55,278 nt of DNA from Rhodospirillales bacterium (GTDB taxonomy: Bacteria; Pseudomonadota; Alphaproteobacteria; JAJFIK01). The stretch is from NCBI GenBank assembly GCA_021775005.1, contig JAJFIK010000085.1:1-55278 (forward strand), given 5' to 3'. Positions 14,167 to 21,891 of this stretch are shown piece by piece. Both the position numbers and the translations under genes were made by a program. How positions within the stretch are numbered: position 1 is the stretch's first letter; the number at the start of each line of letters is the position of its first letter. The notes beneath the pieces are model-generated. The model had not been told where the DNA came from. It saw nothing but the letters and a program-made list of their open reading frames with translations, and did no database searches.

Positions 14167-14982
14167 TTAAATGTTATAGGCATATCCAAGGTCACGCTTG
14201 AGATTGGCGGCGAGTGTTTCGGCAATAAAGACGCGGTCATCATTGCTATAAACCGGCGCATCGACATCATCATCCGGACGCACAATGCGAAGGCGAACGT
14301 TGGGGTCGCGGGCGAGTTTCATGGCATCTTTGGTGGATTTTTCGACTGCAAACTGGATGGCCTCATCGCCCAATTCCAATCCGAAGTGCGTGCAGATGCT
14401 CCGCAATGCCGCCTCTGGATCAGCGCGGAGATCCTCGTAGTGAAAGATCTTCACTTCGTCGGGATATTGCTCAGCAAGGGCGCTCCAGCGATTTTGAAAA
14501 TGAATATACCACCAGATGTCATTGCGAAAGCGCTTCTTTACCGGATCGCTGCGGATATATTCAGCGAAATTCACGCCCTTATTTTCCCGATAGTCTTGCC
14601 CGTGCTTGGCATAGTGAGACACTAGAACATCGCGAATATCACGCACCACAACGGCATAGGGGGGGAATTTCAACACCGACCGCAATGGCTTCATATCAAG
14701 CACGTAACAGGGAATGGAATGCGCCGAGGCAATACGCGGTAAGCCCTGGTATTTCGGTTTGTGCTTGGGATTGCCGATGATGTCATTGGAAGAAGAGTTG
14801 TTGAAATACTTGGGCGGCGGCACGTCATAGTGCTTAGCGATAGCCAAGGACAGCATGAATTTGATCCACTGCGTACCGGAATTTTGTCCAGTCACGAGGA
14901 AGCCCTGGAAATCACGTGATTTTACCAACGCCCAGTTCGAAAGATCACGCTGTACGCAGTGCCACAAAAATCTTCCGTCCAC
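14167..14982 (-). CDS. Sulfotransferase-domain protein
   Basis: A 271-residue PAPS-dependent sulfotransferase. The 5'-phosphosulfate loop is VTGQNSGTQWIKFML, a variant of the PKSGTTW motif. The 3'-phosphate site is VVRDIRDVLVSHYAKH with the conserved Arg and a Ser about eight residues on. The segment IFHYEDLRADPEAALRSI is typical of the family. The N-terminus is soluble, and the acceptor (a carbohydrate, lipid or other small molecule) is unknown. It is a single gene; the 160 bases upstream separate it from the divergent exported-protein operon. Confidence 0.85.
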   Translation of the reverse strand: MDGRFLWHCVQRDLSNWALVKSRDFQGFLVTGQNSGTQWIKFMLSLAIAKHYDVPPPKYFNNSSSNDIIGNPKHKPKYQGLPRIASAHSIPCYVLDMKPLRSVLKFPPYAVVVRDIRDVLVSHYAKHGQDYRENKGVNFAEYIRSDPVKKRFRNDIWWYIHFQNRWSALAEQYPDEVKIFHYEDLRADPEAALRSICTHFGLELGDEAIQFAVEKSTKDAMKLARDPNVRLRIVRPDDDVDAPVYSNDDRVFIAETLAANLKRDLGYAYNI

Positions 14983-15143: not shown

Positions 15144-15737
15144 ATGGAGGGCAAGAACTTGTCCGACGATGCGCAGAACGAGCCAAAACCGGACGATGCC
15201 GATGGCGGGCAGGCTGCCTCCAAGGCGACGGGTAGCCTCACTTTGCTAATGGTGGCTGGCATTGGTGTTGCTATCGTCACCCTGGCCGTCCTGATTTTTT
15301 ATCTCCTGTTTATGCGCGATACGCGGCCATACGTCTGGGCGGAGCCAACACAGCCATACAATGCAGAGCGTTGCGCCGTTGAGGGGGCTTGTGAGGAGAT
15401 CAATCTTGCGGGCACGGGGCATGGCTCCCACGGCGAAGAAGGTGCCTCTCTGTTCGTCTATGACCCCACAATTGATGACGAAATTGCGCAATGGGGGGAC
15501 TGCCTTGATCAGGTTTTGGTGTGCGTCCAAGACGGTATGGCAGAGGAAGATGCGAGCCCTGATGGACCCGATGTGGTGCGCAATTGTGTCGCCGCCGCCG
15601 ACCTGTGCCCCGGTGAATGCCGCGAGCGCTTTGCGAATCGCGCCGCAAATCTGGAGCTTGAGGCGATTGAGCAATTGTTCTTTGCGACATTTGTAGATGA
15701 GCGCGGCTATTGCGTGCCGCGGGAGGCGGACCGATGA
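15144..15737 (+). CDS. Single-pass membrane protein, first gene of the vWA operon
   Basis: A 197-residue protein of no recognised family. A charged 35-residue cytoplasmic N-terminus (MEGKNLSDDAQ) is followed by one membrane segment (about 34-58, LTLLMVAGIGVAIV to FYLLF) and an extracytoplasmic domain of about 135 residues. That domain contains regularly spaced cysteines (RCAVEGAC, DCLDQVLVC, NCVAAADLCPGEC, YCV), which suggests several disulfides. GGGGGTGACT before the ATG fixes the start. Its stop overlaps the start of the next gene (ATGA), so translation is probably coupled. It may be a membrane anchor or assembly partner of the large exported protein. Confidence 0.75.
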   Translation: MEGKNLSDDAQNEPKPDDADGGQAASKATGSLTLLMVAGIGVAIVTLAVLIFYLLFMRDTRPYVWAEPTQPYNAERCAVEGACEEINLAGTGHGSHGEEGASLFVYDPTIDDEIAQWGDCLDQVLVCVQDGMAEEDASPDGPDVVRNCVAAADLCPGECRERFANRAANLELEAIEQLFFATFVDERGYCVPREADR

Positions 15738-18700
15738 TTCGATGGCGCTCCGGCTTCACCGTGCTCATGCTGATGGGCTTCGCCGTTTGGGGTCCAACAG
15801 CTTCCGCGTGGGATACTAAGGAAACCGCCTCGGAAGCATCCAAATGGCGCTCCATTTACCTTTGTGCCACGTCAAGTTCCACAAATCGTATGTCGCTTTG
15901 TGGCGGCAATGAACATGAGCGTTTGGCAGATCGCGCTTTGGGCATGGTCATCTCCGGCAGCAATCCCTATTCCATCGCGGCGGGATCAGATCTTCATGTG
16001 ATCGATCTCAACGCGAGCTACTTCCGCTATGATTTCTTTGGCCCGCCGGACGAAGACAACCCGGTAATGTATGAACGCCAACCGGGCACCTGGGCGGGTC
16101 CGCTTGAAGAACGCACGCTGCCCAATCCACCGCATTTCTCGGGCGTCGCGGATTTCACATATACAATTTACGATTGGATCAACAAAAACCGTCTTTGCCC
16201 GGCCATAAGCAGTGGCGAGTTGGCCCATTGCCATAACTACTCTATCTGGATGGGCGCAGGTTTTAACTCATCTCACTTCGGCTCGCAGGCGAGCGCATCC
16301 TATTTGCAGCTCCATCGAACGGCATTATCGCTAGCGGGCGATGCGCGCGATTTACGCGAGGCAATCAACGGCGAGGGCGACGCAACTCGCCTTGCCCATG
16401 AAGATGCAATCCGCGAAGCAGAACGCATGGCGCTGGCCTATGAAGCTGCGGCGCAGCACTTTTTGCAGGATCGTTGGTCTACGGGGCACATGTGGGAGCG
16501 ATGGAATTCACCGGACCATGCCAGCAATCCCTATCGAAATGACATCGGCCAGGCAGCGGTGATCGGTGCCATCACTGGTATTATTCACGGCTCTGAGGCC
16601 GTACTGGGCCAGCCGCTTCATTTGTCTTCCCCGCGCCCCACCATCGGGCTTTTGGGTCGCGACGGGGTTTCGCCGGCAAGATGGGCCCGCGCGAGTGGTG
16701 GAGAGCTTTACACCGGGGTTGGTGACTATCGCGCCAATGACATGTTCCGCGGTCGCGTTGGCGCGGAATACTCCCTTTATGCCAGCACAGATTGGCCCCT
16801 AAACGTCACCTCCCAGCGTACGATGATGATGCGCTGTCTGGCGGGTGGTTTCCGGGAAGTCATTTCTGCGTTTGGAACCGACCCGAATTCTGGTGGCTAT
16901 GGCATTGAAGGGGTGCAGCTTAGCGGCGCGGGTTCAGGCGGCGTGCCTGGAAGCTGTTTTGATAGTTGGGCCACCAACCGGTCCATTCAAATCGCCTGGG
17001 GCCCGTTAGCGATCTCCGACGACTTCACCGGCACGATCATCCCGCTATTTGTGCGCATGATGCTGCCTACACAGGCGCGAATTGATTCATCTGAAGTCGA
17101 TACAAATACTTTGGCAAACTTGGGTGAGTTACTGGCATCTTACTATGGGGCCAACATTTCCCTGACCGTTGATCGCACCGCGCTCACACGGATATCGTCC
17201 AGCATCTCCTGGCAAGGGACATTCCATGGTGATGATACGGATTTGGCGCGAGGCGGTCTTGGGCCCTTTGGCCGCGCGCTCACCGGAAACGGGTATAGCG
17301 CCCCTGACTATCTTGAGCCCGCAAATATCAGCTCCCTGCCCGATTCTGACCCACGCGGTCGCGACACCAATACGATCTTCGGGTTCTTTAATCGCGCGCA
17401 CGCGGGCGAATACTGCCAAGGGGCCCAGCGCCGCCTTGAGGAGCTTCGACTTGAAATTCGCATTGCCGAAACGCCAGAGGAAAGAGATCGATATCGCGGT
17501 GTGTGTCAGGTGTTGGCCCAGCGTATTTTCTCAGAAACGCGGCCAAACTATGAAGGGCGCATGAGGTCGTTTCAGGTGGCATCTAGCATATCTGCCGGGG
17601 CCACCAATGTGTCGCAAGCGCGCCCGCTTTGTTATGTTCAGCCGCGCGGCGCGATAACCACGGGCCCGACCGACGATACGCTGCCGTTCTATCTTCACCA
17701 GGGTTATGTGCCGTTCAACACCAGCTCTGAACAACCGAACCTGAGCGCTTGGTCTGACACCTTCAACAGCTGGGGGTATGCGCAGCAATCGGTCGCCAAT
17801 TGGTGTGATCAAACGCCTGTCATCAACACCATGGAAGAACCGGAACACGCGACCGCGGACGTAGTCGCTGTCGTGCGTGAAGCTGAAGCGCGGATAGAGC
17901 TTTATGGCCTTAATTTTGGTGCCGGGCGGGGCCGCGTTCTTGTGGGCCGGTCATGGGATAACGCCGTCGTCGTTGAAGACGTGATCCGCTGGTATGATGA
18001 CCGCATCACGTTTGCTCTTGGCGACCAATTCGATGATGTGTCGTTCCTTGAAGACAAGGCATATATTTTCATTGAGAAGGAGCCAGGTGATGACGGGTCG
18101 GAGCGCCCGGGTTATCGCAGCGTGGGGCGATTTGTGCTTTTAAGCGAAGTCCCGCGCCCGCAAATCACATCCATGCGTATTTCGCGGGGGGATGAGGTTT
18201 TCTACGCCTACCGTCCGCCAGCTGAAGACGTTGATGTCGGCCCCTTTGGCTTTGGCGAAGAGGAAGACATTGATGACGACGATGAGGATCGTTTCCGCCC
18301 CATTTCGCCCGGTGAAGTGACCATCGATATTCAGTTCAATATGGATATTGATCGCGGCGCTGAAGGCACGTCTGTACAACTGGGCAACCAGGAGGTCGAC
18401 GGCGAATTTCGCAATCGGCGGCGCTGGCGCGGCACGGTTGATATCGACGACACAACGATTTACCAGTCCTTGCGCGGGGTGCAGGACGTTGTTGTGAACG
18501 TCAAAGCCGACGACGGGGAATGGATTGATGGCGAGCCCGCCACGCCCGGTGCCCAGCCTGATCGATCCAACAAGGTTGTTGTCGATGTCATTCCTGTGAT
18601 TGTGGAGCGTATTCAAGTTCGTGGCGGCGGTCGCATGCTCTATGACGCTGAATGGACCGGCGGCCCCGATTTGGATGAAGCGCCCAGTCTGCTGACCACG

Positions 18701-19969
18701 GCATTTGATGACCCTGAGCGGATGCTGCGGGTCTCTACCGCTCGGGCGGCACCAGCAGACGGGGAGGGGCGCTTGCGGTTTGAACTATCCGTGCCCGTTG
18801 ATGATGCGCCCGTTGTAACTGTGGGCGGCGTCGCTGTGGAGCTAACCGGACGCGACGAGCGCTGGCAGGGCACTTTTGATTTTGAACAGGCCGCAAACGG
18901 TGCCGTTGATGGGGACCTGCCGATCCACATTTCCGCAATTGATCAGGCGCTGAAGGGCCTGGATGCTGACCCGCAATCCGTCGCGCAAATGTTTCCCGTC
19001 CATTTGATAAACGGTTCGAATATCTGGGCGCGGTATGAGGCCAATCGCGGCGCTGAGAATAGCTCAGAAAGAGGCGGCACCGACACCTGGCACCGTATTG
19101 GCGAACCGCCCGCATTGTCTATGGTCATTGTGCTCGATGCGTCGGGCAGCATGGGTGAGCAAGGGCGCATCGAGAATGCACGGGCGGGCATTCAGCAAAC
19201 CTTGAGTGGCCTGCCTGCGGATCAGCGCATCGAGCTTGGTGCTATTGTGTTTTATAACTGCAATAATATTGAAACGATCCCCTTCACCCGTGATGTGGAG
19301 GCGATACGCAATCGCCTGATCGCTGTCGTCCCTTCAGGAGGAACGCCGCTTGCGGGGGCCTATCTGAGCGCAAGGCGGCTGCTGGCATCGGCGGCTAATC
19401 CCGGTGCATTGGAGTGGCGCTATGTGACGTTCTCTGACGGGGCAGAGACGTGCGATGGCAATGCGGCGGGGGCGGCGCAGGAACTTGAGCAACTATTGCG
19501 GGATCACCGCAATGTGGTCCGCGGTGAAGAGCCCGAAGAGGAGCCGCCAGTGCGGCGTGCGCCGTTGCCGGTTGTGGCCTGCACACCAGCGTCCTGGCGC
19601 GCCTATACGGTGGAAATCGATGACAATGGCTCTGGGTTTGACGACATCCGCTTGATCAACCATTGGTTCATTGAGCGGGTGCTGCCCGATGGGCGCTGTT
19701 TCAATCGCTTGGAATCAAAGACCTACAATGTCTATTACGGCTCGTCGCGAAACCGCCGCGGCGGCGGGGCGCGATCTGGCTGGGGCATCAATTCGCGTGC
19801 CAGCGACGAGGCTGTGGAATTTGGTACCTCGCGCAATGGGGCCGCCGATCTTGATCGCGTGCGCGGCATTGCGCAGACGGCGCGCGGGCAATCAGTATCG
19901 CTGCAAGACGCGCGCGGACAAATTGCGACAGCGGTGGCCGCCGCCCTTCTTGAGCAGGAGGGTTCATGA
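15734..19969 (+). CDS. Large exported protein: Zn-PLC/P1-nuclease-like domain plus IPT-like and vWA domains
   Basis: A 1411-residue exported protein. Signal peptide 1-25 ends in ASA, so the mature chain would begin with Trp26, as in zinc phospholipase C and P1 nuclease, where that Trp binds zinc. Candidate ligands follow: His61 (NEHERLADRAL), His134 (PPHFSG), and the motif His242-x3-Asp246-x5-His252 (HFLQDRWSTGH), which has the exact spacing of those enzymes. The distal His-Glu pair is unclear (His285/Glu288). Residues about 705-760 resemble an IPT/TIG fold (YGLNFGAGRGRVLVG) and later parts look Ig-like. A von Willebrand A domain begins near 1127 with a MIDAS DASGS at about 1134, then a Thr in GGTPLAG and FSDG. 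Substrate and role are unknown. Confidence 0.8.
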   Translation: MIRWRSGFTVLMLMGFAVWGPTASAWDTKETASEASKWRSIYLCATSSSTNRMSLCGGNEHERLADRALGMVISGSNPYSIAAGSDLHVIDLNASYFRYDFFGPPDEDNPVMYERQPGTWAGPLEERTLPNPPHFSGVADFTYTIYDWINKNRLCPAISSGELAHCHNYSIWMGAGFNSSHFGSQASASYLQLHRTALSLAGDARDLREAINGEGDATRLAHEDAIREAERMALAYEAAAQHFLQDRWSTGHMWERWNSPDHASNPYRNDIGQAAVIGAITGIIHGSEAVLGQPLHLSSPRPTIGLLGRDGVSPARWARASGGELYTGVGDYRANDMFRGRVGAEYSLYASTDWPLNVTSQRTMMMRCLAGGFREVISAFGTDPNSGGYGIEGVQLSGAGSGGVPGSCFDSWATNRSIQIAWGPLAISDDFTGTIIPLFVRMMLPTQARIDSSEVDTNTLANLGELLASYYGANISLTVDRTALTRISSSISWQGTFHGDDTDLARGGLGPFGRALTGNGYSAPDYLEPANISSLPDSDPRGRDTNTIFGFFNRAHAGEYCQGAQRRLEELRLEIRIAETPEERDRYRGVCQVLAQRIFSETRPNYEGRMRSFQVASSISAGATNVSQARPLCYVQPRGAITTGPTDDTLPFYLHQGYVPFNTSSEQPNLSAWSDTFNSWGYAQQSVANWCDQTPVINTMEEPEHATADVVAVVREAEARIELYGLNFGAGRGRVLVGRSWDNAVVVEDVIRWYDDRITFALGDQFDDVSFLEDKAYIFIEKEPGDDGSERPGYRSVGRFVLLSEVPRPQITSMRISRGDEVFYAYRPPAEDVDVGPFGFGEEEDIDDDDEDRFRPISPGEVTIDIQFNMDIDRGAEGTSVQLGNQEVDGEFRNRRRWRGTVDIDDTTIYQSLRGVQDVVVNVKADDGEWIDGEPATPGAQPDRSNKVVVDVIPVIVERIQVRGGGRMLYDAEWTGGPDLDEAPSLLTTAFDDPERMLRVSTARAAPADGEGRLRFELSVPVDDAPVVTVGGVAVELTGRDERWQGTFDFEQAANGAVDGDLPIHISAIDQALKGLDADPQSVAQMFPVHLINGSNIWARYEANRGAENSSERGGTDTWHRIGEPPALSMVIVLDASGSMGEQGRIENARAGIQQTLSGLPADQRIELGAIVFYNCNNIETIPFTRDVEAIRNRLIAVVPSGGTPLAGAYLSARRLLASAANPGALEWRYVTFSDGAETCDGNAAGAAQELEQLLRDHRNVVRGEEPEEEPPVRRAPLPVVACTPASWRAYTVEIDDNGSGFDDIRLINHWFIERVLPDGRCFNRLESKTYNVYYGSSRNRRGGGARSGWGINSRASDEAVEFGTSRNGAADLDRVRGIAQTARGQSVSLQDARGQIATAVAAALLEQEGS

Positions 19970-21000
19970 TGCGGTTAATGCTTATACTTATACTGCTTCT
20001 TGCCTTTCCCGTTGCAGCCCAGGCGCAAGGCCGTGTTCTGACCATCGACGTGGACACCATTGAGGATGTCACCCTTGGCGACGAAGGCCGCCGTGTCGTG
20101 CGCTTTCGCACCGAACACACCGGCCGCTTGCGCGCGGATTTGTTCTCCCATGCCGATAGCACCGGGGTCATCAGTTTTACCTTCCAAGAGGCCGGAGGCA
20201 GCGACGACGAAAAGGATGCCCTGCCTGCAGTCGTAGGGCCAGGCAGATATGAAGCCATCATCCAAGCGGTCAACCCGGGGGCTGCAACAATTCAGGTTCG
20301 GATCTGGCTTGATATTCCGCTCGATGAATTTGAAACAAACGACAGTCGCGAAACCGCGCGCCGTATTGATATTCCATTTGACGGGGTCATTAGCCTAAGC
20401 GGCACAGATCGCGATTGGTTCCGCGTTGACACTGCGTCGGGCGGTGTCCTCGGCATTCAACTCTATACTGGTGGGGCGTCTACGACCGCGCGGATCGCGG
20501 TCTATGATCACGCCGGCACAGAAGTCTTTTTGTCTGACGATAATCCATGGGGCACCACGGGTATGCGCTATGTGCGCTCGACGGGTCGGGCAATGTACAT
20601 TCTGGTGTGGGATCAGACCGAATGGGGTGACACAGACGCCGCAAACTATAAGACGCTTAATGTGCGTCAATACCGCCCCGAAGGAACGCCTGCCTCCGAC
20701 AATGCATTGGTGACCTTGAGCGTTGAAGGCGATTCTACGGCTTCGTTTCAGCTTGATCTGATTGGCGACGCGATCGGTGTGAACACCGTTGCAGCGAATG
20801 AGGCCGATGCCGTTGCCCGCGAATTGCGTACGGCCATTGAAGGTCAAAACAACTCGATTTGGCGCTCGGTGCTGGCATTGCTTGTGTTGATCGTGCTGGG
20901 CGTTGGCGGTTTTTTTGGCCGGCGCTATTGGCAGCAGCGATCTGGCAAGGCACCTGAATCGTCTCCCACGCCGCCTCCAACTAGCGAAAGCGACACCTAG
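19966..21000 (+). CDS. PPC-domain protein with C-terminal membrane anchor
   Basis: A 344-residue exported protein: signal peptide (to about residue 21, AQAQG), an N-terminal beta domain, a bacterial pre-peptidase C-terminal (PPC)-type domain (FETNDSRETARRI, then GTDRDWFRVDT and RYVRSTGRAMYILVW), a linker, and one membrane helix near 292-312 (SVLALLVLIVLGVGGFFG), followed by a short basic, Pro/Ser-rich cytosolic tail. The start overlaps the previous stop by four bases, with AGGAGG just upstream; a second ATG follows directly. PPC domains usually bind or present protein partners, so this may dock the large vWA protein at the membrane. Its stop TAG is shared with the convergent gene in a CTAG palindrome. 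Confidence 0.78.
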   Translation: MMRLMLILILLLAFPVAAQAQGRVLTIDVDTIEDVTLGDEGRRVVRFRTEHTGRLRADLFSHADSTGVISFTFQEAGGSDDEKDALPAVVGPGRYEAIIQAVNPGAATIQVRIWLDIPLDEFETNDSRETARRIDIPFDGVISLSGTDRDWFRVDTASGGVLGIQLYTGGASTTARIAVYDHAGTEVFLSDDNPWGTTGMRYVRSTGRAMYILVWDQTEWGDTDAANYKTLNVRQYRPEGTPASDNALVTLSVEGDSTASFQLDLIGDAIGVNTVAANEADAVARELRTAIEGQNNSIWRSVLALLVLIVLGVGGFFGRRYWQQRSGKAPESSPTPPPTSESDT

Positions 21001-21773
21001 CTAAATAGTGGAAAGCGCTGAACTGCCCAGAAAAGCGCAACGGCGGCGATACCAATTGAAACGGGGATGGCAATCCGCTGGCGGTACCACGGCTTGTTGT
21101 AGAACCAATGGACCAGCGCCCAGGCCGCCAATATCACCGTTAGTTGGCCAAATTCTACGCCCACGTTGAACGTCACCAAGCCGGTAATAAACTGCCCCTG
21201 CGGCATACCGATACTTTGCAGCACGCCAGCAAACCCAAGCCCATGCAAGAGCCCAAATCCAAAAACGACAAAGGGTCGCCATGGCGTCAATCGATCAAAG
21301 AACATGTTTTCAATGGCAACGAAGGCGATGGACGCAGCGATAAGAAACTCAACCCAAATTGTCGGCACAGCGATGAGCCCCAGAACGGCAAGGGCCAGTG
21401 TCACGGAGTGAGCGACGGTGAAGGTCGTTACTTGCAGAAGAAGCGGTCGCAGCCTTGTGCTCGCGAAGAAAAGCCCCAGCACAAACAAAATGTGGTCAAG
21501 GCCTTTGGGAAGGATATGCACATAGCCAAGCCCCAGATATTGCCATGCCGCTTCAAACAGGGTCGGCGGCTCAGCAGCTGCCCGCGCCGCTTCAATTTCC
21601 TCCGGCGTCTGCTGATCGGCATCGTCTGACGGTCGAGGGCGTCCGTATTGCTCTTGAAGCTGTTGGATAAGCTCGTCTTCGGATGGGTGCGCGGACGTGT
21701 CACGTAAGGGGACGATGACAAGCAACGCCAAAACCACGCAGAAAATCGCCCAAAACTTTGTACTTGTCTGCAA
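20997..21773 (-). CDS. HupE/UreJ-family membrane protein
   Basis: A protein of about 258 residues with an N-terminal hydrophobic export segment, a Glu/Gln-rich extracytoplasmic stretch (30-75) and about six membrane helices. The HupE/UreJ_2 hallmark GYVHILPKGLDHILFVLGLF is clear, as are FTVAHSVTLALA, GLLHGLGFAG and NVGVEFGQL. Family members are linked to nickel or other metal permeation; this longer form with an extracytoplasmic domain is common in genomes without urease or hydrogenase, and its substrate is unknown. No ATG start is available: TTG at 21773 with GGAG six bases upstream is best, TTG at 21785 is the alternative. Confidence 0.85.
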   Translation of the reverse strand: MQTSTKFWAIFCVVLALLVIVPLRDTSAHPSEDELIQQLQEQYGRPRPSDDADQQTPEEIEAARAAAEPPTLFEAAWQYLGLGYVHILPKGLDHILFVLGLFFASTRLRPLLLQVTTFTVAHSVTLALAVLGLIAVPTIWVEFLIAASIAFVAIENMFFDRLTPWRPFVVFGFGLLHGLGFAGVLQSIGMPQGQFITGLVTFNVGVEFGQLTVILAAWALVHWFYNKPWYRQRIAIPVSIGIAAVALFWAVQRFPLFS

Positions 21774-21891
21774 TTGGAGCTCCAAAAAGCTGCTTTGAAG
21801 GGGTCATATTGCTTGTAGATCAGGGGGGGTCAACCGATATGAATAAGGCTAACCTACTAGTGATCAAGTTTGATTACCCGCCAGAGAGCCA

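What the first reader, a model, noticed from the sequence alone, without database searches (positions are those of the whole stretch)
15144..21000. Three-gene operon built around a giant exported vWA protein: candidate new envelope system
Three genes overlap by four bases each (ATGA/TGATG type), so they are made together. Products: a single-pass, Cys-rich membrane protein; a 1411-residue exported protein with a metalloenzyme-like N-terminus, IPT-like and Ig-like modules and a C-terminal vWA domain with an intact MIDAS; and a PPC-domain protein with a C-terminal membrane helix. The layout suggests a membrane-docked, secreted enzyme held by two anchor proteins. I know no described system with this composition. 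Base use and codons resemble the neighbours, so it is not obviously recent foreign DNA.
Basis: partly seen in the sequence, partly recalled or inferred. Interest (0 to 1): 0.8.

Follow-up and report, generated by a model that had tools for sequence, protein, structure and literature searches.

The report
Conserved zinc-phospholipase-like envelope operon
Three overlapping genes encode a very large exported protein, probably a zinc enzyme of the phospholipase C type, with a small cysteine-rich membrane partner that sits beside it in every relative found across several groups of bacteria, plus a membrane docking protein added only in one branch of marine Alphaproteobacteria; the pair has no entry in the family libraries searched.

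Summary
The operon is real: A (15144-15737), B (15734-19969) and C (19966-21000) overlap by ATGA at both joints.

The vWA domain is not the core. B's constant part is its N-terminal domain of about 560 residues. It matches no Pfam or NCBIfam model. By profile-profile comparison it is homologous to a family I recognise (from memory) as PlcC-like zinc phospholipases C (97.8%; reversed control 0.1%). Both share a ligand-like set EH-D-HF-H-HxxxDxxxxxH-H-GD. In every relative with a complete N-terminus the predicted mature protein starts with W, Y, F or H, as expected where residue 1 binds zinc.

A, with six invariant cysteines, lies directly upstream in every relative whose 5' end is held, across Alpha-, Gamma- and Zetaproteobacteria and Myxococcota. 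The vWA tail and C were gained together once, in one alphaproteobacterial clade.

Best reading: an exported tri-zinc hydrolase, most likely a phospholipase C, made with a dedicated membrane-anchored disulfide-rich partner (foldase, inhibitor or tether); in this clade vWA plus C dock it. Activity and A's role are inferred. Foldseek found no structural match.

The parts
15144..15737 (+). Gene A: 197 aa, cytosolic N-terminus, one TM helix (31-56), periplasmic helical domain with six invariant Cys (C120, C127, C148, C155, C159, C190) and invariant D112
   Evidence: directly upstream of B in every B locus with its 5' end held
15734..19969 (+). Gene B: 1411 aa exported protein
15734..15808 (+). B residues 1-25: signal peptide; predicted mature N-terminus W26
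   Evidence: inspection; aromatic or His first mature residue in all complete relatives
15809..17600 (+). B residues 26 to about 620: conserved zinc-phospholipase-like core; invariant E60 H61 D140 H181 F182 H194 E230 E237 H242 D246 H252 H285 G330 D331
   Evidence: profile match to PlcC-like family; Myxococcota members end near here
17860..18015 (+). B residues about 710-760: possible IPT/TIG-like segment (weak)
   Evidence: non-significant match to cyclodextrin glucanotransferases (E 1.4)
19112..19500 (+). B residues about 1127-1255: vWA domain with intact MIDAS
   Evidence: PF13519 E 8.5e-8; MIDAS residues conserved in 8 orthologues
19966..21000 (+). Gene C: 344 aa, signal peptide, PPC-like domain, C-terminal TM helix with basic tail
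   Evidence: only in the vWA-bearing clade
15734..15737 (+). ATGA stop/start overlap A-B
19966..19969 (+). ATGA stop/start overlap B-C

Best explanation
A and B form an old two-gene envelope module. B is exported by a cleaved signal peptide and carries at its new N-terminus a tri-zinc hydrolase domain of the phospholipase C/P1-nuclease type, most likely a phospholipase C. A is made first from the overlapping upstream gene, stays anchored at the inner membrane (or as a lipoprotein), folds with three disulfides, and acts as B's dedicated partner: a foldase, inhibitor or tether that receives the enzyme as it emerges and keeps it inactive or in place. In one alphaproteobacterial clade B also gained a MIDAS-bearing vWA tail and the operon gained C, an inner-membrane PPC-like protein; together these dock or position the enzyme. 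Shown: operon, conservation, homology to the PlcC-like family, ligand pattern, A-B linkage, single co-gain of vWA and C. Inferred: zinc binding, phospholipase activity, A's role, vWA-C contact. Rough likelihoods: zinc hydrolase 0.85; phospholipids as substrate 0.6; A as foldase/inhibitor/tether of B 0.6; vWA-C docking 0.45.
For: Invariant E60-H61, D140, H181-F182, H194, H242-x3-D246-x5-H252, H285, G330-D331 in 17 divergent B domains. hhalign to a PlcC-like family with the same ordered residues and local spacings: 97.7-97.8%, E about 1e-12; reversed control 0.1%. Two members of that family touch Pfam Zn_dep_PLPC at the matching motif (E 0.018, 0.024). First mature residue W/Y/F/H in all complete B proteins, as in S1/P1 nucleases and exported PlcC-like proteins. 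A upstream on the same strand in every locus with the 5' end held; A and B shared by 16 genomes of 193 Myxococcota, one further genome with A alone. vWA and C only in one clade, support 97.
Against: No Pfam or NCBIfam match for the N-domain. Foldseek of the AF2 model (pLDDT 72, pTM 0.82) finds no PLC/P1 fold in PDB, and the mature N-terminus, where the third zinc would bind, is modelled with low confidence. Small S1/P1 and Zn_dep_PLPC profiles do not match B directly. That the bridging family is the characterised PlcC family rests on my memory, not on a sequence test. No functional data; A matches no known fold.
Confidence: 0.55

Rival explanations
1. B is a zinc hydrolase of the same superfamily but acts on nucleic acid, nucleotides or another phosphoester (nutrient scavenging, S1/P1-like), not on phospholipids; A is still its partner.
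For: The ligand pattern and aromatic first residue are equally those of S1/P1 nucleases.
Against: The only significant profile relative is the PlcC-like family; S1/P1 profiles gave nothing, though from three sequences only.
Confidence: 0.2
2. A-B is a toxin-immunity pair: B is a membrane-degrading weapon against competitors or prey, A the cell's own antidote.
For: Strict linkage, A made first, A membrane-anchored, presence in predatory Myxococcota, varied C-terminal modules.
Against: In the polymorphic toxins known to me the toxin end varies and the delivery part is constant; here the enzyme part is constant and the tail varies. No secretion-system gene is a conserved neighbour, and the window's genome has no type II secretin above cut-off.
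Confidence: 0.12
3. The whole is a surface adhesion or sensing device centred on vWA; the N-domain is a structural or sugar/lipid-binding relic without catalysis.
For: vWA with intact MIDAS; a weak phmmer hit to the fimbrial vWA protein Mfa5 (E 0.067).
Against: vWA is absent outside one clade, while the putative ligands of the N-domain are invariant from Alphaproteobacteria to Myxococcota.
Confidence: 0.08

Closest known systems
PlcC/PlcA/PlcB zinc metallophospholipase C family (Legionella, Pseudomonas fluorescens; Aurass et al. 2013, cited in PMC7025538)
   Same: The bridging family that I assign here shares with B the ordered residues EH, GD, N-x2-HF, H, H-x3-D-x5-H, H, GD and a 97.8% profile match.
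   Different: B is 600-1600 aa instead of about 370-400, has about 35 residues between the first mature residue and the EH pair in the window's B, and is always paired with A; no A was found near the bridging genes. Assignment of the bridging family to PlcC is from memory.
Zn_dep_PLPC (PF00882) and S1-P1 nuclease (PF02265)
   Same: H-x3-D-x5-H motif and an aromatic first mature residue followed by a His.
   Different: No Pfam match, no direct profile match, no Foldseek match.
Lipase-specific foldases (Lif/LipH) and PlcH accessory PlcR (known from the literature, not compared here)
   Same: Small envelope partner encoded beside an exported lipolytic enzyme; membrane-anchored periplasmic domain (Lif).
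   Different: A lies upstream, is built on six conserved Cys and matches no known family or fold.
VWA_2 domain (PF13519)
   Same: Full Pfam match with intact MIDAS.
   Different: Only the tail of one clade of B proteins; not the defining part.

Membership tests
PlcC-like zinc metallophospholipase C family (bridging family L059, L078-L092) | Significant profile-profile match over the active-site region | tested here: met
   Prob 97.7-97.8, E about 1e-12, reversed control 0.1
PlcC-like zinc metallophospholipase C family (bridging family L059, L078-L092) | Ordered ligand set EH, D, HF, H, HxxxDxxxxxH, H, GD | tested here: met
PlcC-like zinc metallophospholipase C family (bridging family L059, L078-L092) | Sequence match to a biochemically characterised PlcC | not tested
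   Characterised members are pathogen effectors or secreted enzymes; not fetched
PlcC-like zinc metallophospholipase C family (bridging family L059, L078-L092) | Zinc-dependent phospholipase C activity | not testable with these tools
   needs purified protein
Zn_dep_PLPC (PF00882) | Match above the curated cut-off | tested here: not met
   No match for B or any of 17 family members; bridging members only E 0.018
S1-P1 nuclease (PF02265) | Match above the curated cut-off or profile match | tested here: not met
Zinc PLC / P1 fold | Structural similarity to solved members | tested here: not met
   Foldseek of the AF2 model: best E 1.8, none of them PLC or P1
Zinc PLC / P1 fold | First residue of the mature protein is an aromatic (or His) zinc ligand | tested here: inconclusive
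   Present by predicted cleavage in all complete members; binding not shown
vWA (PF13519) | Profile match above cut-off and intact MIDAS | tested here: met
PPC (PF04151) | Match above cut-off | tested here: not met
   17.7 bits against 25.9, in 1 of 8 orthologues; the EPNDS...DWF pattern fits by inspection

The most novel reading that the evidence does not exclude
A-B is an undescribed, phylum-crossing envelope system in which a tri-zinc phospholipase-like enzyme is obligately paired with a new type of six-cysteine membrane partner (a foldase or inhibitor of unknown fold), and in which swappable C-terminal modules (vWA with C, and other unrelated tails) retarget the enzyme in different lineages.
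Probability: 0.4. Interest if true: 0.75.

Novelty: new variant of a known kind. Interest (0 to 1): 0.58.

Why it matters
It would add a large family of envelope zinc enzymes, present from marine Alphaproteobacteria to Myxococcota and invisible to Pfam and NCBIfam, with an obligate small partner. If A is a foldase or inhibitor, it is a new solution to the problem of making a membrane-degrading enzyme inside a cell that it could harm, and A plus a B core is small enough to test directly. It also gives two uncatalogued families (A and the B N-domain) a common context.

Tried and rejected
Foldseek of the B N-domain against PDB and viral models, and of A against PDB: no significant match. Direct profile comparison of B with small S1/P1 and Zn_dep_PLPC sets: nothing, but those sets hold only three divergent sequences each. 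PDB sequence searches with P0002, the B alignment and the bridging alignment: no usable hit. Defence-system library: none. Plasmid collection: no B relative; the one PlcC-like relative there is annotated 'hypothetical protein'. Literature: no paper found that describes the pair (one search failed on its terms). A broader conserved neighbourhood was looked for and not found; only A, B and C are shared beyond the genus. Promoter and terminator scans were uninformative. Recent foreign origin was not pursued beyond GC. The paper defining the PlcC family is not held.

Full report
Observation. They form an isolated + strand unit between two - strand genes (14167-14982, sulfotransferase-like, and 20997-21785, HupE/UreJ-like, both by inspection).

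Conservation of the operon. A protein search of nearby genomes found one orthologue in the same genus (64% identity), with A and C beside it. A scan of genome contigs with the B alignment found 16 loci. In seven of them (L005-L011: same genus as the window, Parvularculaceae, Hyphobacterium, a 'Rhodobacteraceae' MAG, Maricaulis, an unnamed alphaproteobacterium, Robiginitomaculum) A, B and C are all present in the same order, with full-length B at 39-63% identity. In the more distant loci (Gammaproteobacteria, Mariprofundaceae, 'Deltaproteobacteria', Myxococcaceae and others) only A and the N-terminal part of B are shared. No other neighbour is conserved beyond the genus.

What the conserved unit is. 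The B N-domain profile finds 18 of 193 Myxococcota genomes, 16 of them strongly. An HMM of A built from 17 loci finds A directly upstream, on the same strand, in every B locus whose 5' end is held, including the Myxococcota loci not used to build it. A separate whole-genome search with A returns 17 of the 193 genomes: the same 16 plus one with an orphan A-like lipoprotein and no B on the stretch held. A is a single-TM protein here and in most Proteobacteria, and a lipoprotein (lipobox cysteine, by inspection) in Myxococcota; its outer domain keeps six cysteines and one aspartate in all 17 sequences. Its AF2 model is confident in that domain (pLDDT mostly above 90) but matches no solved fold.

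What B does. Neither Pfam nor NCBIfam recognises the N-domain. Its invariant residues include E60-H61, D140, H181-F182, H194, H242-x3-D246-x5-H252, H285 and G330-D331. The residue after the predicted signal peptide is W, Y, F or H in every complete member; in zinc phospholipases C and P1 nuclease the first residue of the mature protein binds zinc (established knowledge). Two weak hits in the Myxococcota search (L058, L059) led to a bridging family of about 370 residues, L059 and L078-L092. It has the same ordered set of residues with the same local spacings, and the profile-profile match is 97.7-97.8% probable, E about 1e-12, against 0.1% for a reversed control. I recognise this family as PlcC-like zinc metallophospholipases C; Legionella PlcC hydrolyses PC, PG and PI (PMC7025538), and P. 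fluorescens PlcC shows no significant similarity to the Gram-positive zinc enzymes (PMC2613904). That recognition is from memory: the only tested link is a sub-threshold Zn_dep_PLPC hit at the right motif in two members. Four exported members of the bridging family also start with F or Y and have the EH pair close behind (His at residue 6 or 7), as the S1/P1 nucleases here have W or Y and a His at residue 6. Against this, Foldseek finds no PLC or P1 structure for the B model, and three-sequence S1/P1 and PLPC profiles do not match B. I therefore file B as a remote relative of the PlcC-like family, not as a member of Zn_dep_PLPC.

The vWA tail and C. vWA (MIDAS intact in all 8) and C occur only in the eight alphaproteobacterial members, which form one clade (support 97). 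Other clades carry different or no tails: a DUF1349/concanavalin-A-like tail in L012, a weak DUF4412-like end in L015, and no tail in many Myxococcota proteins of about 600 aa. So vWA and C look like an accessory docking module and not the heart of the system. C is a signal-peptide protein with a PPC-like domain (below cut-off) and a C-terminal TM helix. The window's genome shows no type II secretin above cut-off, while the Maricaulis, Hyphobacterium, Robiginitomaculum, Mariprofundaceae and myxobacterial genomes do; B may act in the periplasm here or leave by another route.

Mechanism and status. Shown: gene structure, conservation, A-B linkage, homology to the bridging family, ligand pattern, single co-gain of vWA and C. 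Inferred: zinc binding, phospholipase activity, A as membrane-held foldase, inhibitor or tether, and vWA-C docking. A toxin-immunity reading is not excluded but is less likely, because the enzyme part and A are constant while the tail varies.

Verdict. A real, conserved and uncatalogued system; a new variant of a known enzyme kind with an obligate new partner; moderate to high interest because the central claims can be tested with two small proteins.

Noticed in passing
L070 (G725, C3:59470-61443): An alphaproteobacterial B relative with lipoprotein-type A upstream has one in-frame TAG between the signal peptide and the domain: a broken gene or an assembly error.
   Followed up: partly
L109:1168-1860 (G340): An orphan A-like lipoprotein without a B relative on the stretch held, with an internally repeated segment.
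   Followed up: partly
L017 (CAMAWH010000012.1): A contig titled Klebsiella pneumoniae MAG carries a B relative that groups with Myxococcota in the tree and proteins with long TD repeats; the label looks wrong.
   Followed up: partly
window:20997-27058: A HupE/UreJ-like gene (- strand), then an ABC ATPase, a large two-module permease (MacB/FtsX type by inspection), a 408-aa and a 248-aa protein; this block is kept beside the operon in the same genus (L005) but not elsewhere.
   Followed up: no
G469, G483, G410, G300: Several Myxococcota genomes carry two or three A-B pairs, so the module has been duplicated there.
   Followed up: no
L058:523-2877, L059 and L078-L092: A broad family of PlcC-like proteins in Myxococcota with the HxxxDxxxxxH motif that Pfam and NCBIfam do not catch.
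   Followed up: partly
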